From assembly GCF_000156335.1 (NCBI RefSeq), contig NZ_DS999214.1, forward strand, positions 210,883-274,882: a stretch of DNA of 64,000 nt. The letters run 5' to 3'. The notes beneath the pieces were generated by a model. The model did not search any database and had not been told where the DNA came from. It was given only the letters and a program-made list of their open reading frames with translations. Source of the DNA: Roseobacter sp. GAI101 (GTDB lineage: Bacteria > Pseudomonadota > Alphaproteobacteria > Rhodobacterales > Rhodobacteraceae). A program made the translations under genes and the position numbers. Positions 1-22,228 of the stretch are shown in pieces. Positions within the stretch are counted from its first letter, which is position 1. Every line of letters begins with the position of its first letter.

Positions 1-2331
1 CGCCGTGTTCTCAAGGCTCGCCGCCGTGCCACCGTCGAGGTTCACCGTCCCGCCGCTGTTCTGCACCGCGCCCGAGGTCCCCGCCGTCTGCGTGAATGTC
101 CCCGTCCCCGAGGTGCTGGTCTGTCCGGTCAGCGTCGCACCCGCGTTCGTCACCGTGCCGTCGGCCACCGTGGTGGTGCCTGTGATAGAACCCCCATTCA
201 GATCAGCCGTGCCACCGTTATTCTCAAGGCTGCCCACGCTACCACCATCCAGATCGAAATCGGCGCTGTTGATCACCGCACCGTTGATGACGCCCGTGGT
301 AAGCACGCCGGCATCATCGTTGACGATCAACTGCGCGCCATTCTGGTTGGTCACCGACGTGACCGTTAGCGTCCCGTCAACGGTTATGATGGCACCGGCA
401 CCATCACTGACAATCGTATCCCCCGTCGCGTCCATCGTCGCGCCATTGTCAACGTTGATCGTGCCGCCTGCATTGTTCTGGATGGCACCGCCAGCCGAAT
501 TCACCGTCGTTGTGCCGGCGTTGAAGTTCAAAGCGCCTTCATTGGTGATGACCCCGGTTTGAACGTCGAAAGTCTTGGCACCCGCATCGTTGAAGTTCAC
601 GATACCTGTCGACAGGTTGTTGTAATTGCCGGTCGTTTCAACCAACGAGCCGCCGCCAAAAACGTTGACGATACCCGAGTTATTGGTGGTGTTCCCCGTC
701 CCCGTCAGCGTCGAATTGGCGTTGACGTTGATCGTCGCACCATCTTGGTTGGTGATCGCAGAGGCGCTTAGGCTGGCACCCGCGCCCCCCGCACCGATCT
801 CTGACAGACCATCGTTCGTGAAGGTCCCGATATTCGTCAAGGCATCGCCGTCATCGATATCGACTGTACCGGTGATATCGGCTCCATCAAGATCACCACT
901 GCCTGCAACCGCGCCGTCGAACGTGACGTCGCCCGTGACCGTGTTACCGGCACCGATTGTGATGTTGTTCGCCTGAATGGTTACCGCACCAGTGCCGGCG
1001 TTGACCGCGCCGGTGTTTTCAAAGGTGTCCCCGAAACTAAGCGTGGACGTGCTATTACCGGTGTTCGTGATACCGTTGACGTTGGTATAAGACAGCGCAA
1101 TTGTCGTGGTATTGCCGTTGGCGTTGATGATGCCGTCAGCGGTCAGCCCGCCGCTCAATTGACCACCGCCCGCATTGACGGTGCCGGTGTTGGTCACAAG
1201 ACCGGAAATCGTGCCCCCCGAAATGTCGACCGTACCACCGTTCGACACGGTTGCGACAGAGCCGCTGTTCAGGTCAAGCACCCCGGTCGCATCGACGGTG
1301 GTATTCCCGCTCATCGTTCCGCCAGCGACAGTTACCGTGCCTGTCGTCACCGTGGTGGTGCCCGCGACCGTGCCGCCGTTCAGCAAAGTCTCGCCCGATG
1401 TGTTCGTCAGGCTGGCCACATTGCCAGCCGTCACCGTGATATCCGTGGTGCCGTCCGTTGCCGCGCTGTTGACGAGTGCATCGATATCGCCCTTGGTCAG
1501 CGTAAACGTGCCTGCGTTGACTGTCGTGGTACCCCCAAGTTCGCGGCTGCCATTCGTAGTGCCATTCACGATAAGCGCGCCACCGTCGACGGTCGTCGCG
1601 CCCGTTACCTGGCCGGCAGTGATGGTGGTACTGGACGCTGCATTGGTAGTGTTGGTCAAAGCGGCGATCAGGCCGCCATCTATTGTGACGATCCCACCGT
1701 CGTTGGTTAAAGAGCCGGATAAAGTGCCACCATTAATGTCGATCGTGCCGAAGGTGACGGAATCGTTCTTCGCCGTGATGGCACCCGAAAGGGCACCGCT
1801 GTCAATTGTCAGCGTTCCGTCCAAAACATCGACGTTCCCGCCTGCTCCGCCGTTCAACTTCAGCTCGCCCGCCCCGATCTTGCTTACGCTGGTGGCGACG
1901 TTTGCGGTTATCGTGCCGACCAGACCGCTATCGACGGAAACGTCGCCGGCAATCGTCAATTTTTCCGCACCGCCGGAATCTGCAACCGTTATGCCATCCG
2001 CCGCAAAGGTCAGGTCATTCACCGAGATGTCGGTCGCCAAATTCAGGGTATAGCCGCCCGGTGCAGGTAATGTGGCGTCGTCGCCATCAGCAAAGTCAAC
2101 GCTCGTCCCCGTGGCATCCAACCAGTTAAGAGCGCCGCCGCCAACTTCCCATGTTCCATTTCCGCCGATTGCCGGCGCGGTGTCATCTGATGCGCGGCCG
2201 ATGTTCCATTCAAGAGAAGATTGCGCCATCGCGGTCGACGCCGACAATGTCAGCAGAAAAGTCGTGCTCAAGGCAATCGCGCGCGCGCCGCGCAGATAGA
2301 AACGACCTTCAAAAGAAATCATTGGAACCAT
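1..2331 (-). CDS. Large repetitive secreted adhesin / autotransporter-type passenger (5' part, runs off left edge)
   Basis: The minus strand is open from an ATG at 2331 (second in-frame ATG at 2322) to base 1 with no stop, about 775 residues, so the C-terminus lies outside the window. The N-terminus is a classical signal peptide (hydrophobic core ALSTTFLLTLSAS, cleavage likely after AMA-Q). The rest is low in charge and dominated by Gly, Thr, Asn, Val and Asp in irregular repeats of the type GGTxxGxxTVxxGTVT and NNGGTVDLNGGSITG. That is the pattern of beta-helical passengers of AIDA/filamentous-haemagglutinin-like adhesins. Cys is not evident. Whether it ends in an autotransporter barrel or a type I secretion signal cannot be seen. 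The AT-rich stretch 2335-2430 upstream probably holds its promoter. Family identity is inferred from composition and repeats. Confidence 0.8.
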   Translation of the reverse strand, partial: MVPMISFEGRFYLRGARAIALSTTFLLTLSASTAMAQSSLEWNIGRASDDTAPAIGGNGTWEVGGGALNWLDATGTSVDFADGDDATLPAPGGYTLNLATDISVNDLTFAADGITVADSGGAEKLTIAGDVSVDSGLVGTITANVATSVSKIGAGELKLNGGAGGNVDVLDGTLTIDSGALSGAITAKNDSVTFGTIDINGGTLSGSLTNDGGIVTIDGGLIAALTNTTNAASSTTITAGQVTGATTVDGGALIVNGTTNGSRELGGTTTVNAGTFTLTKGDIDALVNSAATDGTTDITVTAGNVASLTNTSGETLLNGGTVAGTTTVTTGTVTVAGGTMSGNTTVDATGVLDLNSGSVATVSNGGTVDISGGTISGLVTNTGTVNAGGGQLSGGLTADGIINANGNTTTIALSYTNVNGITNTGNSTSTLSFGDTFENTGAVNAGTGAVTIQANNITIGAGNTVTGDVTFDGAVAGSGDLDGADITGTVDIDDGDALTNIGTFTNDGLSEIGAGGAGASLSASAITNQDGATINVNANSTLTGTGNTTNNSGIVNVFGGGSLVETTGNYNNLSTGIVNFNDAGAKTFDVQTGVITNEGALNFNAGTTTVNSAGGAIQNNAGGTINVDNGATMDATGDTIVSDGAGAIITVDGTLTVTSVTNQNGAQLIVNDDAGVLTTGVINGAVINSADFDLDGGSVGSLENNGGTADLNGGSITGTTTVADGTVTNAGATLTGQTSTSGTGTFTQTAGTSGAVQNSGGTVNLDGGTAASLENTA

Positions 2332-4181: not shown

Positions 4182-4574
4182 TGGTTTCTGTCCGCCCGAT
4201 TGATCGTATATTGCCTCACGGATCAGCCTCTTGTGGGCCGATTCCGTTTATGTGTTTTAGAAAGCGCTAAATCCCGTCTTCTGTCAACCCATTGGGAAAA
4301 GCGGGATTTACCTGAACCTCTTCTAAAATCTGAATAGATTAAGGTTAATAGGTTAAGGGGGACAGTTAGATGTCACCCTATAGGGGGGCTGCTGTCACCG
4401 AAACCCCTTAAAACCCAGACCATCTGTCACCAAAACAGCCCTTATCGCGAAAAGCCCTTTGATTTACGCGCAAAGGCCGCTGACCGTCTCTTTGGGGAAT
4501 CCAAAATTTAGGTTTTGCCAAATTCCCGAAATCCCGTTATTGGGAATGCGAGGATAAAAAACGCGAGTAGATAG
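4182..4574. other. Putative replication origin between initiator and parA
   Basis: No gene. The stretch holds an inverted repeat TAAATCCCG (4268-4276) / CGGGATTTA (4302-4310). An AT-rich tract at 4311-4360 has repeated GGTTAA-type words. TGTCACC occurs three times on the same strand at 4371, 4393 and 4425, and could be iterons. A second inverted repeat, ATTCCC (4522-4527) / GGGAAT (4542-4547), lies just upstream of parA and could be a partition-gene operator. The position between a divergent initiator and parAB is where origins of this replicon class sit. I found no clear DnaA box. Function is inferred. Confidence 0.5.
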
Positions 4575-7520: not shown

Positions 7521-8957
7521 ATGACGTCCGACAAAGAAAATCCTGACAAGGGCAGCCGGCCGGCCGCAGGGCAGGTGCCGTCAGGCCAGACCGCAAGCAG
7601 CCAGCGTCCGCGCCCAACGTCGAAAACCAAGACATCATTGGGCGACGATGAACGCACGATTGTCGGGCCGCGCCCTGTATCGCCTGCAAAGCCTGCCTCC
7701 CGGAAACTGACGCTGTCCGACGTCCTTGGGCGTCAGGCGCGCAGCGGGGGGAGCGCATCCAACCCGATGATCGCCGCCGCGAACGGGGTGCTCGAGCTTT
7801 TGGGTCTGTTGCGCACGGGGCTGGTCGAGATGGACGCGCTGAGGTTGCAACGCCATCTTCATGCCGCGCTGACCCAATTTGAAGCAGATGCGCGGGATGC
7901 CGGGCTTTCGGACGCGGATATAAACGATGCCCGCTATGCGCTTGCAGCCACCTGCGACGACATTGCGCAGAACCTTCCGGGCGCGAACCAGGTCTATTGG
8001 AAGCGCCACAGCCTGACGGCCCATTTCTTTGCGGACCCGAATCCGGGCGTCGGGTTTTTCATTCGTCTGCACCGGATGTCCGGCAATCCGTCCCGGCACG
8101 CCATGACCCTTGAGCTGATGTTCGTATGCCTTGGATTGGGCTTCGAGGGGCAATACCGCAGCGCACGCGACGGGCAGGTTGCCTTGTCGAACCTGAGGAC
8201 GGACCTGTATCACCGGATCCGCAGCGTCGTGCCGCGGGCCTATCCCGACATGTCCTGCAACTGGGCCCCCGTCGTGCTGAACGGTGCGCGGCGGCATCAT
8301 CGTGTTCCGTTGTGGATCATCACCGGCATCGGGGCGTCGATGGTGGTGGTGCTTTACGGCGTGCTGGCCTGGACGTTGACAAAGGAAGCGCAAGCCGCGC
8401 AATCGGCAATCATCGCCCTGCATGACCCGACCGACCCCATTGCGATTGAACGGGTTGCCCTTCCCGATGTGCCGGTCGAACCGCAGGTGACCGTATATGA
8501 AGCGCCCAAGACCGGACAGGTTGATCGGGTCCGCGACCAGTTGGCAGACGAGATCGCAGCCGGTCTGACCACTGTCAGCGAAGAGGGCGACTTTATCGCT
8601 GTGCGTTTGGGGGAGGCCTTGCAGTTTGGCGAGGGGGCCGCTGTTCTTGCCAGCGAAAGCCCGATCATCGCGCGTATCGCCACAGTGCTTGAGAATGAAC
8701 CCGGTTCGATCATTGTCGAGGGGCACAGTGACAACATCCCGCTAAGCGGACGGGGCCGGTACAAGACCAACGAAGAGCTGTCGGCCGCCCGCGCAGCCGC
8801 TGTGTCCGATGTGCTTGCGCAATACATGTCCGATCCTGACCGCATGACGGTCGAGGGGGCAGGGGCGTCAAAGCCTCTGGTCCGGGCCGATACCCCCGAG
8901 GCGCGATCCCGGAACCGCCGCGTCGATATTCTTTTGCTCAAGGAGCAGCGGTTGTGA
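7521..8957 (+). CDS. tssL: TssL / DotU-family type VI secretion membrane protein with OmpA domain
   Basis: 478 residues. Residues 1-60 are a Pro/Ser-rich disordered head holding GDDERTIVGP (Thr46), a possible phospho-threonine docking site. Residues about 80-260 are the DotU/IcmH cytoplasmic domain (LLRTGLVEMDALRLQRHL..., ARYALAATCDDIAQN, LMFVCLGLGFEGQYR are hallmark segments). A single membrane helix follows at about 268-293. The C-terminus is an OmpA-like peptidoglycan-binding domain (GHSDNIPLSGRGRYKTNEELSAARA). This evolved TssL with fused OmpA anchors the T6SS membrane complex to the cell wall. It overlaps tssM by GTGA. No other core T6SS gene apart from tssM is in the window. Confidence 0.93.
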   Translation: MTSDKENPDKGSRPAAGQVPSGQTASSQRPRPTSKTKTSLGDDERTIVGPRPVSPAKPASRKLTLSDVLGRQARSGGSASNPMIAAANGVLELLGLLRTGLVEMDALRLQRHLHAALTQFEADARDAGLSDADINDARYALAATCDDIAQNLPGANQVYWKRHSLTAHFFADPNPGVGFFIRLHRMSGNPSRHAMTLELMFVCLGLGFEGQYRSARDGQVALSNLRTDLYHRIRSVVPRAYPDMSCNWAPVVLNGARRHHRVPLWIITGIGASMVVVLYGVLAWTLTKEAQAAQSAIIALHDPTDPIAIERVALPDVPVEPQVTVYEAPKTGQVDRVRDQLADEIAAGLTTVSEEGDFIAVRLGEALQFGEGAAVLASESPIIARIATVLENEPGSIIVEGHSDNIPLSGRGRYKTNEELSAARAAAVSDVLAQYMSDPDRMTVEGAGASKPLVRADTPEARSRNRRVDILLLKEQRL

Positions 8958-11900
8958 GGACCTTGACCAAAGCCGTGTCGACCTCTGTGTACCTTCTGGG
9001 TGCGGCAGCACTTTGTGCCGCGATCTGGTTCGGCCTGCCGATCCTTGGCGTCGACATGCTGGCCATGCCAGAACTGCGCGCCGGGCTGATCGGGGCGGTC
9101 TTGCTGGTCCTGCTGGTGGCCATGGTGCTGCGCCGCCGCAAGCGCAAGCGGGCGGCACGGTCACTTGAACAAAGCCTTGTCGCCAGCCAGGTCGGCGACG
9201 GCGAAGTGCTGGCGGAACGCATGCAGGATGCTTTGGCCCAGCTGAAGAAATCAGGCGGGGCGACCGCGCTCTATGATTTGCCGTGGTATGTCATGATCGG
9301 CCCACCGGGGGCCGGCAAGACAACGGCGCTGGTGCATTCAGGTCTCGATTTCCCCGGCACCGATCCACGATCCGTCGCGGGGTTCGGCGGCACGCGGAAT
9401 TGCGATTTCTGGTTCGCAAAGGACGCCGTTCTGGTTGATACCGCAGGGCGCTATACGACGCAGGACAGCGACGCGCAGGCGGACCGCGCCAGCTGGGGGG
9501 CGTTCCTGGGGCAGCTCAAGGCCGCGCGGTCGGACCAGCCGATCAATGGCATCATCCTTGCCTTTTCGTGCACGGACCTGATGACCGCAGAAGAGGCCGA
9601 GCTGAACGCCCATGCCGACACCATCCGCGCCCGTCTTGCTGAGGTTCATGAAACCTTGCGCACCCATGTGCCGGTCTACGTCATTTTCACCAAGGCAGAT
9701 ATCATCGCCGGTTTCCGTCAGTACTTTGGCGGGTTTGAGGAAGCCCGCCGCCGGGGTGTCTGGGGCGTCACGTTCCAGACCCGCAGCCGCAAGGAACAGA
9801 CGTGGCAAACCGTGCCGGATGAATACGCCCGTCTGATGACCCGTCTGTCGGACGAGGTCAGCGACCGGATGGCCGAAGAACTGGACAGTGCCACGCGGAT
9901 CGCGATTTACGGGTTCCCGAACCAGATGGAGATGCTTGAGCCCAAAATCACCGGCTTTCTGCGCGGTGTGTTCGAAGGGGCGTCGCAGACCAAGGCGATC
10001 TTGCGCGGGTTCTACTTTACATCCGGTACCCAGGAAGGAACGCCGATCGATCAGGTCCTGGGGTCGATCGCGGCCAATGGGGCAGGGGGGATGCAACCTG
10101 CCTTCATGTCCGGTCGTGGGCGCAGTTTCTTTTTGCACGACCTGTTGAAAAAGGTCATTTTCGCCGAACGTGACTGGGTCGGCTATGACCGCAGGCGGAT
10201 GGTGCGCCGCACCATTTTCAGGGGGCTTGCCAAGACGGCCATCGCGACGGCCTGTATCGCGGCGGCGGGCGCTTTCGGCTACAGCTTCTGGAACAACGCG
10301 TCCCTTGTCCGCGAGGCGAACGCGCAGACCCAGGCCTATGCGCAGCGCGCCGATCTGCTGTTGAACAACCGCTATATCGAAAACGCGGCGACGCGTCCTT
10401 TGTTGCCAGCCCTTGCCGCTGTCCGTGCCATTCCCGCCGGCTATGCCGACCCAAGGCCGCAGACCGCGCTGGAACAGTTTGGCCTGTCGCGGCGCGATGT
10501 CCTGCGCGGTGCCGCAGTCGAGGCGTATTCGGACAGTCTTGAGCGATTGTTGCGGCCGCGCATGATGCTGCTGGCCGAACGGCGCTTGGCGGATGCCTTG
10601 ATCAGGGAAGATCACGCCGAAGCCTACCGCGCGCTCAAGGTGTATATCCTGCTGGCCAAGGAACAGAACGGCCGTGACGATGATCTGGCGATCCAAAGCT
10701 ATTTCGCGCAGGCATGGACCGAAGAATATCAGGTCTCTGGGTCGGACAAGGATTACCGCGCGATCAATGCGCATCTGGCGGCAATGCTGGCCCTGGACGA
10801 CCGTGTTTCGCCCCCGATCAAGCCGAACAAGGCCCTGGTGGACCGCGCGCGCGAGGAACTGTTCGATCTGCCGCTGGCTGTACAGGTTTTGACCGTCGCC
10901 CGCAGCGAGGCCGCAGTGTTGCCGCAATGGCATCTGGCCGATGTGCTGGCCGAGGCGGACAGGCTGCGCCTGACGGATGGCCGCGCTGCCAAGACGCTTG
11001 TGTTGCCCGGGCTTTTTACCTTTGACGGGTATTGGGATACCTTTCAGAAAGCACTTTCCAGGGCGCAGGAAACTGTTGACGCCGAAGCGTGGGTATTGGC
11101 CAAGGCAATTACAGCCGCGTCCGAGCGTGCGCGCCTGACCGAAGACGTGCATACGCTATACGCCCAGCAATTTGCCGCAGAATGGAACGGGATGCTGGGC
11201 CTTGTGGCAGGCAATAGCGACGTGACCATGCTGGCCGCCTTGGCCGATGTGATCGCGACCCAAGCACAGGTGGCGCGTTTTCTGGATCCTGACCCCGATA
11301 CGGGCCAAGAGTCCGATGCCCTGCGGACTGTCAAGGGCATGTGGCCGCAGCTGAGTTCGATTGATCTTCGGCGGCGGGCAGAGGAGATCGCGCAAGGTTT
11401 CAAACCCTGGCTTGGGCTGGTGCAGGGTACCATGGGCGCGCGGCCGGTCGATACGGTCATCAAGGATCTGACCGCCCTGTCGACCGATCCCGAAAGATTG
11501 CAAGAGGTGGCCACCCGCGTCGCGGCATTGCCGCCGCTGGTGGGGCGCATGGCGGGCTATGCGGGGCTGGCGGGCGCAGAGACCGTTTTGACGCGTGATG
11601 TTACCGACGTGTGCCACGAGAAGATTGCGCCGTTTTACCCGTTCGGGGGCGAAACGGCAAAGCCGCTGCCTGTTGCCGATTTCGGCGCTTTCTTTGGCTA
11701 TGGCGGGCAGGTTGACCGTTTCTGGCAGACATATGGGGGGAAAGGCAGTGTCGTGCTGCCGGTCTCTGAATCGGTGCAGGCGGAATTCGGCAAGCTGGAT
11801 GCGTTGCGCGCCGGTCTTTTCGAGGCGGGATCAAGCGTGCCCAAGATGGCGCTGAACCTGCGTCTGGGGGGCGTGACCAAAGGCGTTACGTCCGTGGACG

Positions 11901-12226
11901 TCGATCTGGGCAATGGCGTGCAGCGCCTTGTGTCGGGCGGACCCGGCATCGTCATCGACTGGCCTGCGAACATCAATGGCATGGTCTGGACGGTGAACGG
12001 CGATCTGGACGACGTCGGGACGCTGACGCTTGATGCTGGTCCCTGGTCGGTGATCGACCTGATACGGCGTGGCGGGGATGTGCAGACCGAAGGGGCCAAC
12101 GTGGACATGACCCACCGTGCAGGGTGGCACGCGTTCCGGATATCCCTTGGCGTTGAAGGCGGGACGAAGATGCCGTTCCTTGATCCGATCTGGCAGGATT
12201 TCACCTGTCCCGACCGGTTGGAGTGA
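8954..12226 (+). CDS. tssM: TssM / IcmF-family type VI secretion inner-membrane protein
   Basis: 1090 residues from a GTG that overlaps the tssL stop. Two N-terminal membrane helices are seen (VYLLGAAALCAAIWFGL and GLIGAVLLVLLVAMVL). A cytoplasmic GTPase-like domain with intact Walker A GPPGAGKTT (residues 116-124) and DTAGRY follows. A third helix near residue 425 (ATACIAAAGAFGYSFW) leads to a long periplasmic part ending in the IcmF-related beta domain. Size and layout match the family (about 1100-1200). In known T6SS, TssM with TssL and the lipoprotein TssJ spans the envelope; no TssJ is seen here. It lies upstream of the PP2C phosphatase and kinase, a frequent T6SS regulatory neighbourhood. 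Confidence 0.93.
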   Translation: MRTLTKAVSTSVYLLGAAALCAAIWFGLPILGVDMLAMPELRAGLIGAVLLVLLVAMVLRRRKRKRAARSLEQSLVASQVGDGEVLAERMQDALAQLKKSGGATALYDLPWYVMIGPPGAGKTTALVHSGLDFPGTDPRSVAGFGGTRNCDFWFAKDAVLVDTAGRYTTQDSDAQADRASWGAFLGQLKAARSDQPINGIILAFSCTDLMTAEEAELNAHADTIRARLAEVHETLRTHVPVYVIFTKADIIAGFRQYFGGFEEARRRGVWGVTFQTRSRKEQTWQTVPDEYARLMTRLSDEVSDRMAEELDSATRIAIYGFPNQMEMLEPKITGFLRGVFEGASQTKAILRGFYFTSGTQEGTPIDQVLGSIAANGAGGMQPAFMSGRGRSFFLHDLLKKVIFAERDWVGYDRRRMVRRTIFRGLAKTAIATACIAAAGAFGYSFWNNASLVREANAQTQAYAQRADLLLNNRYIENAATRPLLPALAAVRAIPAGYADPRPQTALEQFGLSRRDVLRGAAVEAYSDSLERLLRPRMMLLAERRLADALIREDHAEAYRALKVYILLAKEQNGRDDDLAIQSYFAQAWTEEYQVSGSDKDYRAINAHLAAMLALDDRVSPPIKPNKALVDRAREELFDLPLAVQVLTVARSEAAVLPQWHLADVLAEADRLRLTDGRAAKTLVLPGLFTFDGYWDTFQKALSRAQETVDAEAWVLAKAITAASERARLTEDVHTLYAQQFAAEWNGMLGLVAGNSDVTMLAALADVIATQAQVARFLDPDPDTGQESDALRTVKGMWPQLSSIDLRRRAEEIAQGFKPWLGLVQGTMGARPVDTVIKDLTALSTDPERLQEVATRVAALPPLVGRMAGYAGLAGAETVLTRDVTDVCHEKIAPFYPFGGETAKPLPVADFGAFFGYGGQVDRFWQTYGGKGSVVLPVSESVQAEFGKLDALRAGLFEAGSSVPKMALNLRLGGVTKGVTSVDVDLGNGVQRLVSGGPGIVIDWPANINGMVWTVNGDLDDVGTLTLDAGPWSVIDLIRRGGDVQTEGANVDMTHRAGWHAFRISLGVEGGTKMPFLDPIWQDFTCPDRLE

Positions 12227-12394
12227 CCGGCAACCGGCCTAGCCACAGGGGGGGCCAGGGGCAGGGTGGTTGACCGCATCAGGATCGCGGGCGGAAAGAG
12301 GGTATCGCGATGCCCCTTTCGATGCCAAAGTGACATGATCTGATTGCGCGTGGGTCAGGTGACGGACGAAATGCCTTGAGGAGGGCCGGCAGAA

Positions 12395-13210
12395 ATGAAC
12401 GCAAAGATGGTGGCGTCGGTCGATGGCATGATGGCCTTTGAAACCAGCACGCGCACGGACGTCGGTCGTGTCCGCAAGTTGAACGAAGACAGCTTGCTGG
12501 CCTTGCCTGAATCCGGACTGTGGGTGGTTGCAGACGGGATGGGCGGACATACGGCGGGCGATTTCGCAAGCCAGACGATCGTGGCCCAGATGAAGACGAT
12601 CGGCCTGCCGACAGGGGCCATGGATTTGCGGGCCCGGTTCATGGACCGGCTGACAAAGGCCAATGCCCGTATCCATGCCCATGCTGCCGAAATTGGTCAG
12701 AAGACGATCGGGGCCACCGTCGTGGGGCTGTTGATCCAGCAGGATCATTTCGCCTGCATCTGGTCGGGTGACAGCCGCATCTACCGGATGCGGGGCCGCA
12801 AGCTGACCCGCGTCACCCGCGACCACACCGAGGTGCAGGCGCTTTTGGATGCCGGTTCCATCACCGCCGAACAGGCAGAGGCATGGCCCCGCAAAAACGT
12901 GATTACCCGCGCGATTGGCGTGACGGACCTGCCCGAATGTGACATGGTCGAAGGGAAGCTGGCTGATGGTGACGTTTTTCTTTTGTGTTCCGACGGTTTG
13001 ACTGAATATTTTGACGACTCCGAATTGGCAGATGTATTATACGAAGGTGTGGATTTCCCGCTTGAGGGGATGTGCGCCCATTTGGTTGGCACCGCGCTTG
13101 CGCGGGGGGGGAAAGACAATGTTTCCGTTGTCATGGTCCGCTGCCAACAGCTGGATTTACCGGGATTTGCCGTTGATGGCGATTATCCCGAGCTTAGAGG
13201 ATTGCAATGA
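12395..13210 (+). CDS. pppA: PP2C-family Ser/Thr phosphatase (PppA-like)
   Basis: 271 residues. The metal-binding PP2C motifs are all present: RKLNEDS, VADGMGGH, SGDSRIYRMR, LLCSDGLTEYF and KDNVSVVMVR, so it should be an active manganese/magnesium-dependent phosphatase. No membrane segment is present. A GAGGAG element lies about 17 bp before the first ATG; a second ATG four codons on and another at MMAFETST are alternatives. The stop overlaps the start of the kinase gene (ATGA), a strong sign that kinase and phosphatase form an antagonistic pair. In T6SS of Pseudomonas, PppA and PpkA set the phosphorylation state of the FHA protein; the same role here is inferred and the FHA partner is not in view. 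Confidence 0.9.
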   Translation: MNAKMVASVDGMMAFETSTRTDVGRVRKLNEDSLLALPESGLWVVADGMGGHTAGDFASQTIVAQMKTIGLPTGAMDLRARFMDRLTKANARIHAHAAEIGQKTIGATVVGLLIQQDHFACIWSGDSRIYRMRGRKLTRVTRDHTEVQALLDAGSITAEQAEAWPRKNVITRAIGVTDLPECDMVEGKLADGDVFLLCSDGLTEYFDDSELADVLYEGVDFPLEGMCAHLVGTALARGGKDNVSVVMVRCQQLDLPGFAVDGDYPELRGLQ

Positions 13211-15303
13211 GCGACGAGAAAAAGACGTCTGACAAGACACCGGACACGGGTGCAGACGACGATGACAAGACAATCCTGTTCAGTCCTCAGCCTGCCGCAC
13301 CTGCGCCCGCGCCAGACGTGCCCGAGGACGATGACGACCGCACCATCGTCGTGCGCGATACGCCAAGCGCGCCTGCACCTGTCGCCGAAGACGACGCCGG
13401 CGCTAGCGTTGAAGAGATGCCCCAAAGCGAAGTTCAGACCGTTCCGGTCGAACCTGCGGCCCCCGAGCCGGCCAGCGCGGCCCCGGTAACGGAAACGCCG
13501 TCCGTTGTGGCCCCGAATGCAGGGATCGTCAGCTCTCCGATCACCTCGCTTGAACCGGGGATGGTCATCAACAACATGTACCGGGTCGAAGAAAGTCTGG
13601 ACCAGGGCGGCATGGGCCGGGTGTTTCGCGGCGAGGAGATCGGCACCGGTGAATCCGTAGCGATCAAGGTCATTCTGCCCGAGATGGCAGAGGACACCAA
13701 GGTTGCCGACATGTTCCGCCGCGAGGCGCGCGTCTTGCGCCAGCTGCACCATGACGCGATCGTCCGCTATTTTGCCTATGTGCCGCCGGATGAGAACCTG
13801 AGCTTTCACGCGCTGGTCATGGGGTTCATTCAAGGCACCAAACTGTCGGACACGCTGAAAGAAGGTGGCCCGCTGAAGCGGAGCGATGTCATCAAGCTGA
13901 CCATGCGGTTGGCCGACGGGCTGGAACGGGCGCATAGCATCGGCGTGGTGCACCGCGATCTGTCGCCGGATAACGTGATGCTGCAAGACGGCGATATCGG
14001 CAAGGCGGTGTTGATCGACTTCGGAATCTCGCGGTCGTCGACCGTCAAGGACGTCACCATCGGCAACGAATTTGCGGGCAAGCTGAAATATGTATCGCCC
14101 GAACAGCTGGGATCGTTCGGGGGACAGGCCGAGGGCCCCAGCGATGTCTATTCGCTGGGTCTGCTGATGATCGCGATGCTGATGGGCAAGCCCTACAACA
14201 TGGGTGGCAACTTTGCCGAAGCGGTGCAGCTGCGGATGAGCGTGCCTGACATCAGCATGGTGCCCGAGGAATTCCAGCCGATGCTGCACGCGATGTTGCA
14301 GCCCGACCCCAAGCTGCGCATGTCCGGCATGACCGAGGTCAAGGATGAGCTGCGCGCCATGATGGACGGAGAGGGCATGACGACGCGGTCGCGTTTGACG
14401 ATGCCCGTAACGGAGACGGCGCAGGACCGGTCCGTGCCCGGTTTGCAAGCGGTGCCATTCGCGTCGACCAGCACCGGGGGGCAGACCAGTTCACCGCGCA
14501 CCATGGCACCCACGCGTTTGCCTGATCTTCCGGCAAAGTCCAGTCGCGGGCTTGTCGCGACACTGATGGTCGCCGGGTTGGCGGCAGTTGGCGGGGCTGC
14601 GGTGTTTTTCGCCGGTGATTTCATGGCCGGTGGCAGCACTGATGGCGGCAGCACAGCGTCTGATCCAGTCGCCGCCGGGCTTGAGCGTACGGTGGGCAGC
14701 CGCGCCACGTTTCTGGCGGAAACCGTGCCGCAGGACTGCGCCTATGCCGCGCGCCGGACACACGGGGATGTGGCGGGTCTGATCGAAGGGTTTGCCCAGA
14801 ACCTGACGCCCTTGCAGGGCATTGGCGACGCGTATGGGGCCGCATTTGGCAGTACGCCCGATGTCGTGCCGCGCAATGTGACGGCACCGCAATGTGCCGT
14901 GCTTGATTTTGCACGCAGCCTTCAGGGCACCAACGGCGGCGGGGTCGAACTTTCCCTGACGCAAAGCACGCTTTCGCGGTCCGAAGGGGTGCAAGGCACC
15001 TTGCATGGCAGTGCGGGACGGCAAAACTGGCTGGCGCTTGTTGATCCGAACGGGCAGGTCTTTTCCCTGATGCGGCAGTTCGATGACGCCATCGGGGACG
15101 AGCGGCGGTTTGCATTCCGGCTGCCCTCGGCGGCACCGGGTATCTATATGCTGGTGGCCACGGCGTCAGACAGCCCGTTGGTACGCGCTGGTGCCATGCG
15201 GGACGGAACGCAAGCCTCTGACATCCTGCCGTTGATGACCCGCGAGCTTGCAACCGACGGGCAGGGGGCGGCGGATGTCGCCTTTCTCGAGCTGACGCGA
15301 TAA
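13207..15303 (+). CDS. ppkA: Transmembrane Ser/Thr protein kinase (PpkA-like) with periplasmic Cys-pair domain
   Basis: 698 residues. The acidic head carries two near-identical threonine motifs, DDDDKTIL (Thr22) and DDDDRTIV (Thr46). The Hanks-type kinase domain (about 118-400) is complete: LDQGGMGRVFRG loop, Lys154 in VAIKV, HRD at 249-251, DFG at 271-273. A Pro/Thr linker leads to one membrane helix at about 447-468. The periplasmic C-terminus (about 495-698) has Cys511 and Cys563. From Cys563 it aligns without gaps to the end domain of the TonB-like protein encoded convergently at 15399-16982. It is not the usual PpkA C-terminus known to me. The head motifs may be autophosphorylation or FHA-docking sites. 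Confidence 0.9.
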   Translation: MSDEKKTSDKTPDTGADDDDKTILFSPQPAAPAPAPDVPEDDDDRTIVVRDTPSAPAPVAEDDAGASVEEMPQSEVQTVPVEPAAPEPASAAPVTETPSVVAPNAGIVSSPITSLEPGMVINNMYRVEESLDQGGMGRVFRGEEIGTGESVAIKVILPEMAEDTKVADMFRREARVLRQLHHDAIVRYFAYVPPDENLSFHALVMGFIQGTKLSDTLKEGGPLKRSDVIKLTMRLADGLERAHSIGVVHRDLSPDNVMLQDGDIGKAVLIDFGISRSSTVKDVTIGNEFAGKLKYVSPEQLGSFGGQAEGPSDVYSLGLLMIAMLMGKPYNMGGNFAEAVQLRMSVPDISMVPEEFQPMLHAMLQPDPKLRMSGMTEVKDELRAMMDGEGMTTRSRLTMPVTETAQDRSVPGLQAVPFASTSTGGQTSSPRTMAPTRLPDLPAKSSRGLVATLMVAGLAAVGGAAVFFAGDFMAGGSTDGGSTASDPVAAGLERTVGSRATFLAETVPQDCAYAARRTHGDVAGLIEGFAQNLTPLQGIGDAYGAAFGSTPDVVPRNVTAPQCAVLDFARSLQGTNGGGVELSLTQSTLSRSEGVQGTLHGSAGRQNWLALVDPNGQVFSLMRQFDDAIGDERRFAFRLPSAAPGIYMLVATASDSPLVRAGAMRDGTQASDILPLMTRELATDGQGAADVAFLELTR

Positions 15304-15309
15304 GGATAA

Positions 15310-15331
15310 ATGCGCCTCGTGCGGGGCGCAT
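15310..15331. terminator. Hairpin between convergent kinase and TonB-like genes
   Basis: ATGCGCC (15310-15316) pairs with GGCGCAT (15325-15331), 7 bp with an 8-base loop. It stands in the 95-bp gap between two converging genes and could end transcription from both sides. There is no clear T-run, so it is a weak candidate. Confidence 0.4.
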
Positions 15332-15398
15332 CCCTGTGTTTACGGCAGCGGAATGGGCTGAAAACCAGCGTCCCGATAAGCGCCTGATCAGCGCCCGA

Positions 15399-16982
15399 TC
15401 AACGGACGTCGAAGGTCGCGACCCCGAATACCATGTTGCGCAGGGTATCACCGGGGATTGGCGCGAAGACGGTTTGCGAAACATTCCCGATGCGGGCTTC
15501 GATATCCAGGGGAGCGGCCTGCGTCCCCAAGGCGAGCAGGATTTGACGGGTGGCACGCACTGGCCCCGACCGTGCGACGGGGGCGGCAAATACCGGTACA
15601 TCATCTTCAAGACGAACGAAGGGTGTCATGTCCTGCACGACGCCATTGTCATCAATCAGCAACAGCGTCACGAACAGCCCGCCCGCGCCGATAACACGGC
15701 CGTTCAGCGTGTCCCCGCTTGCGAGAGACGTGCTTTCCAGGGCCAGGCCGATGCGGCTGGCAGGATAACTTTCGGCCTGACGCAGAATATCAAGCGTGGC
15801 GCATTGGCGGGGGTCGATCTCTTCTCGGGTTTGCACTGGCTCGAAGCCGAGGTTTGCCGTCACGCGTTCTGCCAGATCATCCAGAACGTCCAGATCTGTC
15901 CCGATCAGAGAGATGCCAGCGCCTGGATTTCCACTTGCCCGTCGCGGCAGGATCAGCGTGCATTGGGTTTGCGGCAATGCGCGGATGCGACGCAGCAACT
16001 GACCGATGGCGATATCCGAGGCTGTCGGATTGGGCAACGCGCGCGGTGCCGGGGGAGGGGAGGCTGCCGGTGTTTCGTCCGCTTCTGGTGCGGTCGCTTC
16101 TGGCTCGGTTGTTTCCGGCGGGGTGGCTTCGGGTTCGGGCAGCACAACGGGTTCCGGCGCGGCGACGGCTGGCGTGTCGAGCGGAATTTCCGGCACCGGT
16201 TCAGGCGTCAAAAGAGCGAGAACATCAGGCTCGGGCGAGGCTTCGGGGGTTAGCAGCAGGGCGCTGTCCTGCTCCGGCCCGACATCGGCAACAAGGCCGC
16301 CACGGCTTTCGGCCAAGGGGTTCAACACCGTGTCGTCAATCGGGCTGATCCCCTCGATCGCGAGCAGCGACGGTGTTTCGGGTTCGGGTTCAGCGACTGT
16401 CGGAAGGGGCAGGGGGGCTGGTTCCGGCTCTGGCACAGGTGCAATCACCGTTTCTTCCGGCTGCAATGCTGCGACCTCTTGCGGGGCGGGCTCTGGTTCG
16501 ATCGGCCGCTGTTCGACCACCTCCGGCTCCACTGGTTCGGGTTCAGCCGCCTCGGGTTCTATGGCTTCCGGTTCGGTGACATCCGGTTCCGTCAGCGCAA
16601 GATCATCCGGCTGGGTGACGTCTTGCTCTGGCGCAAGGGCAGTGTCATCGGGCGCGAGCGCTTCCTGATCCGGGTCCAGTGCCGTCAGGCTGTCAGGCAG
16701 TTCTGCTTCGGTCCGGGTATCCGGTTCCAGCGGGATCGCATCCGGCGGGATCAGCATGCTTTCGTCGATCACATCGGTTTCGCCCACGATCTCGGCATCC
16801 AGAATTTCCAGACTGACGGCAAACTCGGGCTCGGGCCGTTCGGATTCCACCGGATCAGGCAGAAACGCGACCGCCCCCGACAGCATGAAAAAGGCAATGA
16901 CCCCGGCATGAGTGGCCGCCGATGCGGTCATCGAACCGTACCATGCCAGCCCTTTTGCGTCAGCGTGCGGTAGAAAGCTCAT
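15399..16982 (-). CDS. TonB-like Pro/Glu-rich energy-transducer protein with Cys-pair periplasmic domain
   Basis: 527 residues. A short cytoplasmic head is followed by one membrane helix (about residues 22-43, THAGVIAFFMLSGAVAFL). A very acidic Pro/Glu/Val-rich linker of about 270 residues comes next, long enough to span the periplasm as in TonB/TolA. A globular C-terminal domain follows from about 330. That domain has Cys341 and Cys394. From Cys394 through IDDNG it aligns gaplessly over about 55 residues with the kinase C-terminus next door. It lacks a recognisable TonB C-terminal motif such as YP, so TonB-like refers to architecture and to the overlapping ExbD and ExbB genes (ATGA overlap with the second ExbD). 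It may deliver proton-motive work to an outer-envelope partner; that is inference. Confidence 0.75.
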   Translation of the reverse strand: MSFLPHADAKGLAWYGSMTASAATHAGVIAFFMLSGAVAFLPDPVESERPEPEFAVSLEILDAEIVGETDVIDESMLIPPDAIPLEPDTRTEAELPDSLTALDPDQEALAPDDTALAPEQDVTQPDDLALTEPDVTEPEAIEPEAAEPEPVEPEVVEQRPIEPEPAPQEVAALQPEETVIAPVPEPEPAPLPLPTVAEPEPETPSLLAIEGISPIDDTVLNPLAESRGGLVADVGPEQDSALLLTPEASPEPDVLALLTPEPVPEIPLDTPAVAAPEPVVLPEPEATPPETTEPEATAPEADETPAASPPPAPRALPNPTASDIAIGQLLRRIRALPQTQCTLILPRRASGNPGAGISLIGTDLDVLDDLAERVTANLGFEPVQTREEIDPRQCATLDILRQAESYPASRIGLALESTSLASGDTLNGRVIGAGGLFVTLLLIDDNGVVQDMTPFVRLEDDVPVFAAPVARSGPVRATRQILLALGTQAAPLDIEARIGNVSQTVFAPIPGDTLRNMVFGVATFDVR

Positions 16983-17383
16983 TCCTCATCGCCCCCCGCA
17001 TTGAGGTGGAGGGTGACAAGCCGGACTTCGACCGCGATCAGGGCTTCTTCGTCAAGGATGGTCAAGAGGTTCGCTGCCGTCATTTCCCGGTCGGTCAGGA
17101 CATGCACCGTGGGGCTGTCGATCAGGGCGTCGGCCAAGGCCCCTTTTTCAATGACCTCACCGTCAAGCAACATTGCGCCGTCGGCCTGGATGATCAGCAG
17201 GGGATCGGGCAACAGGTCAAGCGGCAGGCGGGTGGTTTCCGGCAAGCTTACCTCGACTGTTCTCGAGCTCATCAGCGAACCGGTGGTGATGAAGAAAAAG
17301 ATGAGCAGAAGCACGATGTTGATGATCGCCAGCGAGCTGTCGAATTGCGCACCCTTGCGGCGTTGAGGAAGGCGCGACTGCAT
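16979..17383 (-). CDS. ExbD/TolR-like protein 2 (Asn in place of the conserved Asp)
   Basis: 134 residues from the ATG at 17383, two bases after the first ExbD stop; an upstream in-frame ATG would overlap that gene heavily. One membrane helix (LAIINIVLLLIFFFITTG) and an ExbD-like periplasmic domain with conserved TDR near residue 95. The proton-pathway Asp of ExbD/TolR, normally in P-x-I-D, is replaced by Asn22 here (AIIN). The partner ExbD upstream keeps Asp24. The stop overlaps the start of the TonB-like gene. A heteromeric stator with one protonatable subunit is the likely arrangement. Confidence 0.85.
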   Translation of the reverse strand: MQSRLPQRRKGAQFDSSLAIINIVLLLIFFFITTGSLMSSRTVEVSLPETTRLPLDLLPDPLLIIQADGAMLLDGEVIEKGALADALIDSPTVHVLTDREMTAANLLTILDEEALIAVEVRLVTLHLNAGGDEE

Positions 17384-17384
17384 A

Positions 17385-17855
17385 TCAGGCCCCTTCGCGG
17401 GTGATTTGGACACCGGCGACATTGGCACCTTCAAGCGCCTCCAGCGCTTGGGCAACGTCCTGGACGCGCGCGGTATCGCCGACGATCAGAACGACCTGGC
17501 CAGGGGTGTCCTGGCTGCCGATGGCGTCAGCCAAGGACCCGAGTTGCGTGATGTCGTAATCCTGTCCTGCCGTGCGGACCGACCCGTTGCTGATCGTCCA
17601 AAGCGTGACATCCACAGTGTCGGAACGCGGCGGCGGCGCTGGCTTCGTCTCGTCTATGCCGGCACCGGCGGTCTGGTCATCGTTCGGGTCAGGGGCTGCG
17701 GCGGACGCGGTTTTCAGCGTGATCAGCGAATAGGGCGTCAGGCTTGTCGACAGCATGAAGAAGATCAACAGCTGAAACATGGCATCCGCCAATGGGGTCA
17801 AAACAAATCGGTAGCTGCGTTTGCGTTCCGGCAGCGGGACTTTTTTAGAGGCCAT
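17385..17855 (-). CDS. ExbD/TolR-like protein 1 (conserved Asp present)
   Basis: 156 residues. The single membrane helix carries the expected TPLADAMFQLLIFFMLST with Asp24 in the proton-conducting position. A Pro/Asp-rich linker (about 55-80) leads to a C-terminal ExbD-like periplasmic domain with the pattern VxLIVGDTARVQDVAQALEAL. It begins 15 bp after the ExbB-like gene and ends 1 bp before the second ExbD, so the four genes ExbB-ExbD-ExbD-TonB-like are one operon on the minus strand. Function: stator subunit of a proton-driven complex in the inner membrane. Confidence 0.88.
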   Translation of the reverse strand: MASKKVPLPERKRSYRFVLTPLADAMFQLLIFFMLSTSLTPYSLITLKTASAAAPDPNDDQTAGAGIDETKPAPPPRSDTVDVTLWTISNGSVRTAGQDYDITQLGSLADAIGSQDTPGQVVLIVGDTARVQDVAQALEALEGANVAGVQITREGA

Positions 17856-17870
17856 GCGATGCGGCCCCGA

Positions 17871-18497
17871 TTATTTCGCCGCGTTCGGATCAACCCGCCC
17901 GTGGATCGCGGCAGACATGAGGGCCTCGATCATGTTGCGTTCGCGGTCGATCCGCCCTTCGAGCCATGTGGCAAGAAAGAAGGCGAAAAGCGCGAGCACG
18001 AGACCGGCGGCAGTGGTGGTCAAGGCGACGTAGATACCGCCCGCGAGGGTCGTCGGGTCAACGGCACCTTCGGTAACGGCCAGCACCGAAAACGCATCGA
18101 TCATGCCGACGACGGTGCCAAGCAGGCCCAACATCGGGGCTGCCTGCACGACCATGTCCAGGGCACGCATCCGTTCGCTCATCGTGGCAAGTTCGATCAT
18201 CGCGGTTTGGCGGCTCAGTTCCTCAGCATAGCTGACGTCGGTGGGACGCGCCTGAATGCCCGAAAATACGGCCTGAAGGATGCGGGACAGAACCGATTTG
18301 CGTTTGCCCGCTTCGCTGATTGCGTCATCGACGCGGCCGTTCAGCCAGTCATCAAGGATCTTTTCCGCCTGATTGCGTTTCCCCACGCCCATCCGTGCGA
18401 ATTGGCCGGTCTTGTACAGGCCGATGCCCAAGGCAACGAGCGACAGCAAGCCAAGAAGCCCGTAGACAGTAAGGGTAGCGAGGTCAAAAATGGTCAT
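17871..18497 (-). CDS. MotA/TolQ/ExbB-family proton channel subunit
   Basis: 208 residues with an N-terminal helix (LTVYGLLGLLSLVALGIGLY), a cytoplasmic segment, and two further helices. The family signature APMLGLLGTVVGMIDAF and the threonine/alanine-rich third helix (LAGGIYVALTTTAAGLVLALFAFFL) are clear, including the ALTTTAAGL motif that lines the proton path. Length suits ExbB/TolQ rather than MotA. It heads the ExbD-ExbD-TonB-like set and follows a small secreted protein gene by 24 bp. With the two ExbD proteins it should form a proton-motive-force motor; what it drives is unknown. Confidence 0.9.
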   Translation of the reverse strand: MTIFDLATLTVYGLLGLLSLVALGIGLYKTGQFARMGVGKRNQAEKILDDWLNGRVDDAISEAGKRKSVLSRILQAVFSGIQARPTDVSYAEELSRQTAMIELATMSERMRALDMVVQAAPMLGLLGTVVGMIDAFSVLAVTEGAVDPTTLAGGIYVALTTTAAGLVLALFAFFLATWLEGRIDRERNMIEALMSAAIHGRVDPNAAK

Positions 18498-18521
18498 GAC
18501 AGTTCCTGTTTGGAGCTTGGA

Positions 18522-18953
18522 TTACAGGCCAAAGGCAATATCGGTGCGCGATGTCACGATCAACTTGGACAGACATACATCGCTCTCGTCAGAGCCACCA
18601 TCGGCGATGATGCAACTGGCCACGTCATTTACGATGATTTCGGACAAGTCTGCGCAATTTGAGGGAAGGTTGTATTGAACCACCCGCCGCTTGCCCGCGC
18701 TAAGCGATCCCAAGGGCAAGGCGAGAAGGTTGCGAAACACACCGTCTGCGCCGAAAACGGCAAGCCGCCAGGTGACTTCTTCAAAGTCCTGATCCAGACC
18801 GTTTTCACCGAAGAAAACGACCTGGCAAACACCTTCCGAAGACTGGATGGTACGGTTCAATTCCAATGATATACTGGGTTCGGCGTTCTGTGCAAAGGCC
18901 ATTGACGCCGAAAGAAAAAGTGAAGCGGCCGCGGTTGATGTGAATTTCCCCAT
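18522..18953 (-). CDS. Small secreted protein at the head of the ExbB operon (unknown)
   Basis: 143 residues from ATG 18953 (another ATG at 18965). A clear signal peptide, MGKFTSTAAASLFLSASMAFA-Q, precedes a soluble periplasmic domain with four Cys (GVCQVVF, SNCADL, SCIIAD, DVCLSK), probably two disulfides. I do not recognise the family. The 24-bp gap to the ExbB gene suggests co-transcription, so it is a likely periplasmic partner of the proton-driven complex. The AT-rich stretch 18965-19010 upstream probably carries the operon promoter. Confidence 0.7.
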   Translation of the reverse strand: MGKFTSTAAASLFLSASMAFAQNAEPSISLELNRTIQSSEGVCQVVFFGENGLDQDFEEVTWRLAVFGADGVFRNLLALPLGSLSAGKRRVVQYNLPSNCADLSEIIVNDVASCIIADGGSDESDVCLSKLIVTSRTDIAFGL

Positions 18954-19066
18954 GCACCCTCGCAAATGTATGTTTTAAATTTATCTATACATTAGCGGTA
19001 TTGGTCTTGGGCCTGTCAACTGTGAATTCAATAAAACCCCCGACGACTGCGCGACGGAGGAACCGC

Positions 19067-19564
19067 TTAGCGGTAAACGCCAACCACGTATTTAGGGGCG
19101 TTTTTCGGAACGAATTCTTCAAAATCGTTGAAGGCCTGAGGTCCGGATGCAGCAACGGTTGACGCGCTTGCTGCCTGTGGTTTGGCCTGCCGGATGAATT
19201 TCGGTGCGCTCTCCTGCTTGACGAAGCTCTTTTTCGGGGCGGCCAAGGGGGCGATCGTTTCTGCATCCACCGCTGGACCGGTAAGGGCGGCGAGCGTGGG
19301 TTGTTCAGTTTGCGAGCTCAAGTCTGGCGTCTTGAACACTGCAGGGCGTGTCGGTGCCGCAAGGACCGATGCCGACATCGAAGCATTGATGGCCGGAACA
19401 TAATTCGGAATGACAAAGCCGGAGGATCCATCGTTGATGATTTCAGGCTGCTCGAGCGATGCGGATTGTACCGATGTCGAGAAGTCATGGTAGGCAGAAA
19501 GGCCAAGGCCTGCACCGCCGGAAAAAGCGACGAGCGATAATGAGAGCGCAAATGTACTTTTCAT
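19067..19564 (-). CDS. Hypothetical secreted Ala/Pro/Ser-rich protein
   Basis: 165 residues. An N-terminal signal-like segment (MKSTFALSLSLVAFSGGAGLGLSAYHD) is followed by a low-complexity region rich in Ala, Pro, Ser and Thr, then a Lys/Pro-rich part and a short C-terminus EEFVPKNAPKYVVGVYR. No domain recognised. It sits about 110 bp upstream of the ExbB-operon head on the same strand, and diverges from the secreted gene at 19855. A GTATATAAGG-like element upstream (19585-19600, minus strand) may be its promoter. Membership of the envelope locus is by position only. Confidence 0.6.
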   Translation of the reverse strand: MKSTFALSLSLVAFSGGAGLGLSAYHDFSTSVQSASLEQPEIINDGSSGFVIPNYVPAINASMSASVLAAPTRPAVFKTPDLSSQTEQPTLAALTGPAVDAETIAPLAAPKKSFVKQESAPKFIRQAKPQAASASTVAASGPQAFNDFEEFVPKNAPKYVVGVYR

Positions 19565-22210: not shown

Positions 22211-22228
22211 TTCAGAACCGGAATATCC

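What the first reader, a model, noticed from the sequence alone, without database searches (positions are those of the whole stretch)
7521..18953. TssL/TssM membrane complex joined to an ExbB-ExbD-ExbD-TonB-like motor and a kinase/phosphatase pair: candidate undescribed envelope system
The plus-strand genes give the inner-membrane half of a type VI apparatus (TssL with OmpA, TssM) plus PP2C phosphatase and membrane kinase. The minus-strand genes converge on them and encode a proton-channel subunit, two ExbD, a TonB-length transducer and a secreted Cys protein. No sheath, Hcp, VgrG, baseplate, ClpV or TssJ is in the window. The shared kinase/transducer C-terminal domain argues that both halves act together. 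A proton-driven use of TssLM, rather than ATP-driven sheath contraction, would be new to my knowledge. A distant remainder of a normal T6SS on the replicon would weaken this.
Basis: partly seen in the sequence, partly recalled or inferred. Interest (0 to 1): 0.82.

Follow-up and report, generated by a model that had tools for sequence, protein, structure and literature searches.

The report
Proton motor inside a secretion weapon
A TonB-type proton motor, related to the one bacteria use for heme uptake, has been built into a type VI secretion system together with a matching sensor kinase; the window holds a trimmed version of that set beside a full secretion system.

Summary
The sheath-free interpretation fails. 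A T6SS with every core part except TssJ, including its own TssL and TssM, ends 5.3 kb before the window on the same contig. In relatives the same block (TssL-TssM-[TagF]-PP2C-kinase, converging on transducer-ExbD2-ExbD1-ExbB-Cys protein) sits inside or beside T6SS clusters. So this is the retained part of a Rhodobacteraceae T6SS subtype that carries a TonB-like proton motor. None of my ten paper searches showed such a subtype.

The window's reduced form (no sheath, TssK, TagF or ClpV of its own) recurs in one other genus under purifying selection, again beside a T6SS. The nearest non-T6SS relatives of the motor that I found are TonB systems, some beside heme-uptake genes. In the T6SS form TonB's C-terminal domain is replaced by a periplasmic domain that the neighbouring kinase shares. 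The two ExbDs are unequal (Asp in one, Asn in the other). A large autotransporter-like protein accompanies the module.

Best reading: motor and kinase/phosphatase couple proton flow and a surface partner to T6SS control. Linkage is shown; mechanism is inferred. Sheath-free use of TssLM in the reduced form is unlikely but not excluded.

The parts
1..2331 (-). N-terminal 777 aa of an autotransporter-like surface protein (1619 aa; C8:208354-213213): signal peptide and repeats by eye; C-terminal barrel-like region lies outside the window
   Evidence: homologues beside tssK or the kinase in relatives; one relative's C-terminus matches TIGR01414 E 2e-11, three others tested do not, the window's own among them
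7521..8957 (+). TssL2 (DotU domain + OmpA domain), second TssL of the genome
   Evidence: DotU 176 bits, OmpA 54 bits
8954..12226 (+). TssM2, 1090 aa, Walker A intact (GPPGAGKTTA at 116), about 117 aa shorter than full-cluster relatives, mostly after residue ~750
12395..13210 (+). PP2C phosphatase
13207..15303 (+). Ser/Thr kinase, TM 449-467, periplasmic C-terminal domain (its only two Cys, 511 and 563, lie there)
15399..16982 (-). TonB-like transducer: TM 23-41 with SxxxH, Pro/Glu/Ala-rich linker, C-terminal domain shared with the kinase
16979..17455 (-). ExbD2, Asn in place of the channel Asp; the real start is probably near 17383
17385..17855 (-). ExbD1, channel Asp kept
17871..18497 (-). 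ExbB proton-channel subunit
18522..18965 (-). Secreted four-Cys protein (CysSec), Ig-like model, nearest solved structure IrmA
19067..19564 (-). 165-aa secreted-looking protein; partial homologue at the same place in G298 and L057
19855..20652 (+). 265-aa secreted-looking protein; part of it (about residues 70-207) conserved in T6SS-2 clusters

Best explanation
The window holds the membrane, kinase and motor part of a Rhodobacteraceae T6SS subtype ('T6SS-2') after loss of its own sheath, tube, baseplate and ATPase, kept beside a second T6SS ('T6SS-1'). Shown: the ExbB-ExbD1-ExbD2-transducer-CysSec module is a recurrent companion of T6SS in this family and is related to TonB energisers, some of them beside heme-uptake genes. 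Inferred: protons passing ExbB and the Asp of ExbD1 (ExbD2 has Asn) move the TonB-like arm. Its periplasmic domain, the twin of the kinase's sensor domain, acts on an outer-membrane or surface partner (CysSec and/or the autotransporter-like protein). Motor and kinase read the same partner, and kinase, phosphatase and FHA protein pass its state to T6SS assembly or firing. In this genome the retained unit serves the neighbouring T6SS-1.
For: T6SS-1 on the same contig. Same block within T6SS clusters in 4 of 4 genus relatives with the closest TssM. Named plasmids: 16 of 16 records with this ExbB also hold this TssM; I read 6 of the 16, and 5 of the 6 show sheath genes in the stretch fetched. CysSec within 70 kb of VipB at 55 of 150 listed loci, rough chance 1.4. 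T6SS-2-range CysSec genomes with a sheath gene: 32 of 34, against 102 of 394 overall. Same reduced unit beside T6SS-1 in G298. dN/dS 0.06-0.30 for 9 of the 10 unit genes tested, the tenth (CysSec) not computable. Shared kinase/transducer domain. Kinase motifs invariant in 16 of 16. Asp in ExbD1 27 of 27, Asn in ExbD2 26 of 26. ExbB tree: TonB-type and tssA-adjacent groups each one side of a branch, reduced pair nested among full clusters. TonB domain in the fourth gene of 5 of 5 standalone modules tested.
Against: No experiment. That the motor acts on CysSec or the autotransporter-like protein is inferred from neighbourhood only. G322 keeps motor, CysSec and a weakly autotransporter-like stretch beside T6SS-1 but no kinase or PP2C of the unit in the 40 kb read, so kinase and motor are separable. 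G085, G233 and G449 carry the module without TssLM and unlinked to their T6SS. The transducer C-terminal domain is not TonB_C, so the TonB analogy covers only its N-terminal half and its partners. Two of the six plasmid records read (Tritonibacter, Thioclava) gave no CysSec hit. 19 of the 102 T6SS-positive genomes have no CysSec match, and 66 genomes have CysSec without a VipB match, so neither requires the other. Two of the 32 T6SS-2-range genomes with a sheath gene (G066, G311) showed CysSec without ExbB in the stretch annotated.
Confidence: 0.55

Rival explanations
1. A free-standing, sheath-independent envelope machine: TssL2/TssM2 together with the ExbBDD motor now do work of their own, powered by protons.
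For: The reduced unit is kept in two genera with intact ORFs and purifying selection. Its TssM has diverged far more than ExbB predicts (50% against 76% expected, residual -4.1 SD), as if freed from sheath and baseplate docking. It has no TssK, TagF or sheath of its own.
Against: Both genomes carry a T6SS on the same contig, with remaining T6SS-2 parts (FHA2, DUF6931-2) beside its tssA. T6SS-2-range genomes mostly have a sheath gene (32 of 34). The unit is nested inside full T6SS-2 clusters. TssLM of this type was not seen near the module in G085, G233, G449 and G322.
Confidence: 0.14
2. The motor energises the outer-membrane step of the autotransporter-like protein (or another receptor), and its T6SS association is mainly shared residence on plasmids.
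For: Autotransporter-like protein, PP2C, kinase and motor stay together without TssLM in G085, G233 and G449. Related standalone motors lie beside heme receptors in three annotated plasmids.
Against: Association with T6SS is also seen on multi-megabase contigs and for the tssA-adjacent class, in which no autotransporter-like hit appeared in the seven loci annotated. The kinase of the cluster carries the transducer's own domain. Genomes with the unlinked module still have a sheath gene, 3 of 3.
Confidence: 0.17
3. Decaying remnant of T6SS-2 with no present function.
For: Loss of sheath, baseplate, ClpV, TssK and TagF; TssM2 dN/dS 0.30 against 0.08 for TssM1.
Against: No stops, catalytic motifs kept, dN/dS well below 1 where computable, same gene set kept in two genera at saturated dS.
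Confidence: 0.08

Closest known systems
Type VI secretion system (proteobacterial, long-form TssL with OmpA, with FHA/kinase/PP2C genes)
   Same: TssL, TssM, PP2C, kinase and FHA; in relatives the core genes and VgrG/PAAR
   Different: Carries an ExbB-ExbD-ExbD-TonB-like motor and CysSec, with M23 peptidase, DUF1036 and autotransporter-like genes in several relatives; no TssJ hit in the window's genome
TonB-ExbB-ExbD system beside heme-uptake genes (e.g. Phaeobacter inhibens pP66_c)
   Same: Gene order CysSec-ExbB-ExbD-ExbD-transducer; Asp in the first and Asn in the second ExbD in all three annotated heme plasmids and Asn in 6 of 6 readable standalone loci
   Different: TonB_C domain replaced by the kinase-shared domain; no receptor or heme ABC genes annotated in the motor operon's surroundings in the T6SS plasmids read, except an iron ABC/TonB-dependent receptor set about 25 kb away in P. 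aminophilus
Kinase/phosphatase/FHA post-translational control of T6SS (PpkA-PppA-Fha; recalled)
   Same: Membrane kinase with intact motifs, PP2C, FHA protein
   Different: Periplasmic kinase domain is the transducer's; a TagQRST-like arm was not looked for
Other pmf-driven trans-envelope motors (TolQRA, GldLM of type IX secretion, AglRQS; recalled; PMC8986121 seen as search listing only)
   Same: ExbB/TolQ-type stator with ExbD/TolR partners powering an envelope machine
   Different: Tied to T6SS; Asp/Asn ExbD pair and kinase-twin transducer domain

Membership tests
T6SS (the window unit by itself) | Sheath TssB/TssC, tube Hcp, baseplate TssK and others, ClpV belonging to the unit | tested here: not met
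   Genome has VipB only at C8:202878 and in a TssB-TssC fusion at 188738, one TssK at 182270, all in T6SS-1; window scan against T6SS-1 proteins
T6SS (the window unit by itself) | TssL/TssM inner-membrane pair | tested here: met
T6SS (the relatives' T6SS-2 clusters) | Core genes next to the same TssL-TssM-PP2C-kinase/ExbBDD block | tested here: met
TonB system | TonB_C / TonB_2 C-terminal domain in the transducer | tested here: not met
   no Pfam match; hhalign against the standalone TonB alignment E 0.26; standalone fourth genes match TonB_C/TonB_2 in 5 of 5
TonB system | Single N-terminal TM with SxxxH, Pro-rich linker, ExbB/ExbD partners | tested here: met
   His in 22 of 22, Ser four before it in 15 of 22 (Ala in 7); linker 52% P+E+A. 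SxxxH motif recalled
TonB system | Energises a TonB-dependent receptor | not testable with these tools
   needs experiment
DUF4384 transducer (tssA-adjacent class) | DUF4384 C-terminal domain | tested here: inconclusive
   4 of 4 tssA-adjacent transducers tested match DUF4384; window transducer does not; hhalign E 0.1
Ser/Thr kinase-PP2C-FHA T6SS control | Active-site Lys, HRD, DFG; PP2C; FHA protein | tested here: met
   motifs invariant in 16 of 16; PP2C; FHA2 gene C8:206521-208293
Ser/Thr kinase-PP2C-FHA T6SS control | Phosphorylation switches T6SS | not testable with these tools
   needs experiment
Type Va autotransporter (neighbour gene) | Signal peptide, repeat passenger, C-terminal beta-barrel ending in an aromatic | tested here: inconclusive
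   9 of 9 end in F or W, signal peptide by eye only; 1 of 4 C-termini matches TIGR01414; no Pfam match in 3 of 4 whole proteins, PATR in one

The most novel reading that the evidence does not exclude
A T6SS subtype uses proton motive force through a converted TonB system as a mechanical input to secretion: an asymmetric ExbB-ExbD(Asp)/ExbD(Asn) motor works a transducer that is a structural twin of the T6SS kinase sensor, arming or opening the envelope for the T6SS. In the reduced lineage the motor has been transferred to a different T6SS, or works with TssLM without a sheath.
Probability: 0.25. Interest if true: 0.87.

Novelty: new variant of a known kind. Interest (0 to 1): 0.66.

Why it matters
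T6SS energetics are described (from general knowledge) as sheath contraction plus ClpV ATP recycling. A T6SS class with a conserved TonB-type motor, found in many genera of one family, would add a second energy source and a testable envelope-sensing step. The Asp/Asn ExbD pair is also a natural test of how many proton-carrying sites an ExbB-type motor needs.

Tried and rejected
Sheath-free machine as the main reading: rejected after a T6SS was found on the same contig and the block inside T6SS clusters.

TssM C-terminus replaced by a foreign domain: rejected; it matches C-terminal parts of other TssM-length frames in 48 of 394 family genomes (its own included), mostly at 22-32% identity, with deletions against full-cluster relatives.

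Window transducer as TonB or DUF4384: no Pfam match, hhalign E 0.26 and 0.1; the DUF4384-class alignment against the kinase domain is not significant either, E 0.069. The transducer model's residues 91-210 resemble many Ig-like domains (best DUF4785, 4kh9, Z 9.0, 93 aligned, rmsd 2.6) with no clear single relative, and its first 90 residues were barely tested.

Kinase complementation (T6SS-1 has no adjacent kinase in G000 and G298, but has one in G008, G015, G022, G025, G032 and G035): suggestive, but G322 shows none in the stretch read.

Spread: the transducer-domain profile over 337 genomes of the class matched only G000 and G352, both of the same family.

Rows dropped: L175 from the tssA-adjacent alignment (wrong frame); G443 from the ExbB alignment (it spans two stretches); rows of plasmid records from the structure jobs.

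Papers: 10 searches, seen as listings and abstract starts; passages of PMC4337385 and PMC11837500 seen. None of what I saw described ExbB/ExbD in a T6SS cluster. The library holds open-licence papers only, so this is not proof of absence.
Full report
Observation. The transducer and the Cys protein match no Pfam or NCBIfam family. The kinase and transducer C-terminal domains are homologous (hhalign probability 99.05, E 2e-18, 180 columns). In each protein the only two cysteines lie in that domain.

Surroundings. The window is C8:210,883-274,882 of a 4.52-Mb, nine-contig assembly, 96.5% complete. On the same contig at 175.8-205.6 kb lies 'T6SS-1': TssA, B, C, Hcp, E, F, G, H, K, L, M, VgrG, PAAR, TagJ, FHA, PP2C and TagF, and a TssB-TssC fusion protein beside an ion-channel gene. 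It has its own TssL (469 aa) and TssM (1194 aa with IcmF_C). The genome has one TssK and no TssJ hit. Between T6SS-1 and the window's tssL lie a second DUF6931 gene, a second FHA gene and an autotransporter-like gene, then rep and parAB (named by sequence look).

The parent system. In the four genus members whose TssM is closest (G008, G019, G023, G029; 48-50% over the N-terminal two thirds; 35 genus members among the 60 genomes searched) the same block occurs with TssK before TssL, and with TssF (part of it in G023), TssG and TssH further on; G008 and G019 also show TssB, TssC and Hcp in the stretch, and G008 TssA. TagF, between TssM and PP2C, was seen in three of the four (not G023). In plasmids, 16 of 16 records with this ExbB also hold this TssM; one further record with a close TssM had no ExbB match. 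I read six of the 16: Rhodovulum, Sagittula, P. aminophilus, Tritonibacter and Leisingera S132 show the sheath genes; the Thioclava stretch begins inside the autotransporter-like gene, so its sheath was not seen.

The reduced unit. G298, another genus, has the window's arrangement without TssK and TagF between its parts, on a contig that also carries T6SS-1 (with TssE) and the second FHA, second DUF6931 and autotransporter-like genes. Between the two genomes dN/dS is 0.06-0.30 for nine of ten unit genes (CysSec not computable) with no stops; dS is saturated, so ratios are rough. TssM2 identity is 50%, where 76% is expected from ExbB identity in 190 pairs of the other loci (the pairs are not independent). 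The ExbB tree places the reduced pair inside a five-row group with two T6SS-2 clusters and G322 (support 100/99). So the unit looks like a derived, selected reduction, not random decay.

Three contexts for the motor. CysSec hits occur in 149 of 394 family genomes (150 rows listed, more not shown). Of the 150, 55 lie within 70 kb of VipB (rough chance 1.4), and 34 of these lie 2.4-5.3 kb away. By genome: 83 have both, 66 CysSec only, 19 VipB only, 226 neither (one search gave 80/44/22/248 from the listed rows only). Class one sits beside tssA of T6SS-1: 7 of the 20 loci fetched, plus G022. Its transducer carries DUF4384 (4 of 4 tested); 3 of 4 nearby proteins tested for it in this class are caspase-like. 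Class two is the window's type. Class three is a standalone TonB system: three annotated plasmids have it next to or within about 10 kb of heme ABC, ChuX/HutX and TonB-dependent receptor genes, and the fourth gene is a true TonB in 5 of 5 tested, one of them an Acuticoccus record without heme genes in view. In the tree I labelled 11 rows as this class: three with annotated heme genes, three more by their TonB domain, five only because no T6SS was seen in their 20 kb. The ExbB tree separates the tssA-adjacent and the standalone groups, each on one side of a branch; long branches and an arbitrary root mean that direction is not proven.

Co-occurrence. Of the 34 genomes with CysSec in the T6SS-2 score range, 32 have a sheath gene, against 102 of 394 overall. 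The two exceptions: G183, where no ExbB was seen in the 20 kb annotated, and G087, on a 3.3-kb contig. Two of the 32, G066 and G311, also showed CysSec without ExbB there. G085, G233 and G449 carry autotransporter-like protein, PP2C, kinase and motor without TssLM nearby, unlinked to their T6SS. G207 has its T6SS-2-like cluster about 170 kb from the motor.

Motor details. ExbB keeps invariant Thr residues in its second and third TM segments. ExbD1 has Asp at the channel position in 27 of 27 sequences (one of them the tssA-adjacent G022), ExbD2 Asn in 26 of 26. The standalone class shows Asn in 6 of 6 readable second ExbDs, and Asp then Asn in all three annotated heme plasmids and in Acuticoccus; the tssA-adjacent class has Asp in the second ExbD too (8 of 8; also Pseudosulfitobacter). 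The transducer TM has an invariant His (22 of 22) with Ser four residues before it in 15 of 22, as recalled for TonB. CysSec models as an Ig-like sandwich (pLDDT 88.9) nearest IrmA (Z 11.3, 109 aligned, rmsd 3.3). The transducer domain (pLDDT 93.1) has an alpha/beta half and an Ig-like half.

Mechanism. Shown: genomic linkage, shared domain, kept active-site residues, selection. Inferred: proton-driven movement, a common partner for kinase and transducer, control of T6SS. The autotransporter-like protein is the best candidate partner because it stays with the module when TssLM does not, but nothing here shows contact.

Limits. Genomes of the family survey were drawn about one per genus; relatedness makes the P values optimistic. 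Ten paper searches of an open-licence library do not prove that the subtype is undescribed.

Noticed in passing
G000:C8:188432-192583 (L003/L004), outside the window: TssB-like N-terminus and TssC-like region joined in one 1383-aa protein beside an ion-channel gene, between TssH and VgrG; similar proteins in G298, G008, G015, G025, and a partial one in G322.
   Followed up: partly
C8:208354-213213 (window 1-2331): Autotransporter-like proteins of 1.3-4.0 thousand residues accompany the T6SS-2-type motor, with a conserved C-terminal ~300 aa and variable repeats.
   Followed up: partly
window 3480-6946: rep and parAB (by sequence look) sit inside the T6SS-2 remnant; G139 and the Rhodovulum plasmid also have parAB right beside T6SS genes.
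   Followed up: no
L158, L161, L172; L206: Caspase-domain proteins near tssA-adjacent motors; in Pseudosulfitobacter also a two-partner secretion pair with a 2118-aa exoprotein.
   Followed up: no
window 21002-25360: RND efflux pair (membrane fusion protein and pump, by sequence look only) directly after the unit.
   Followed up: no
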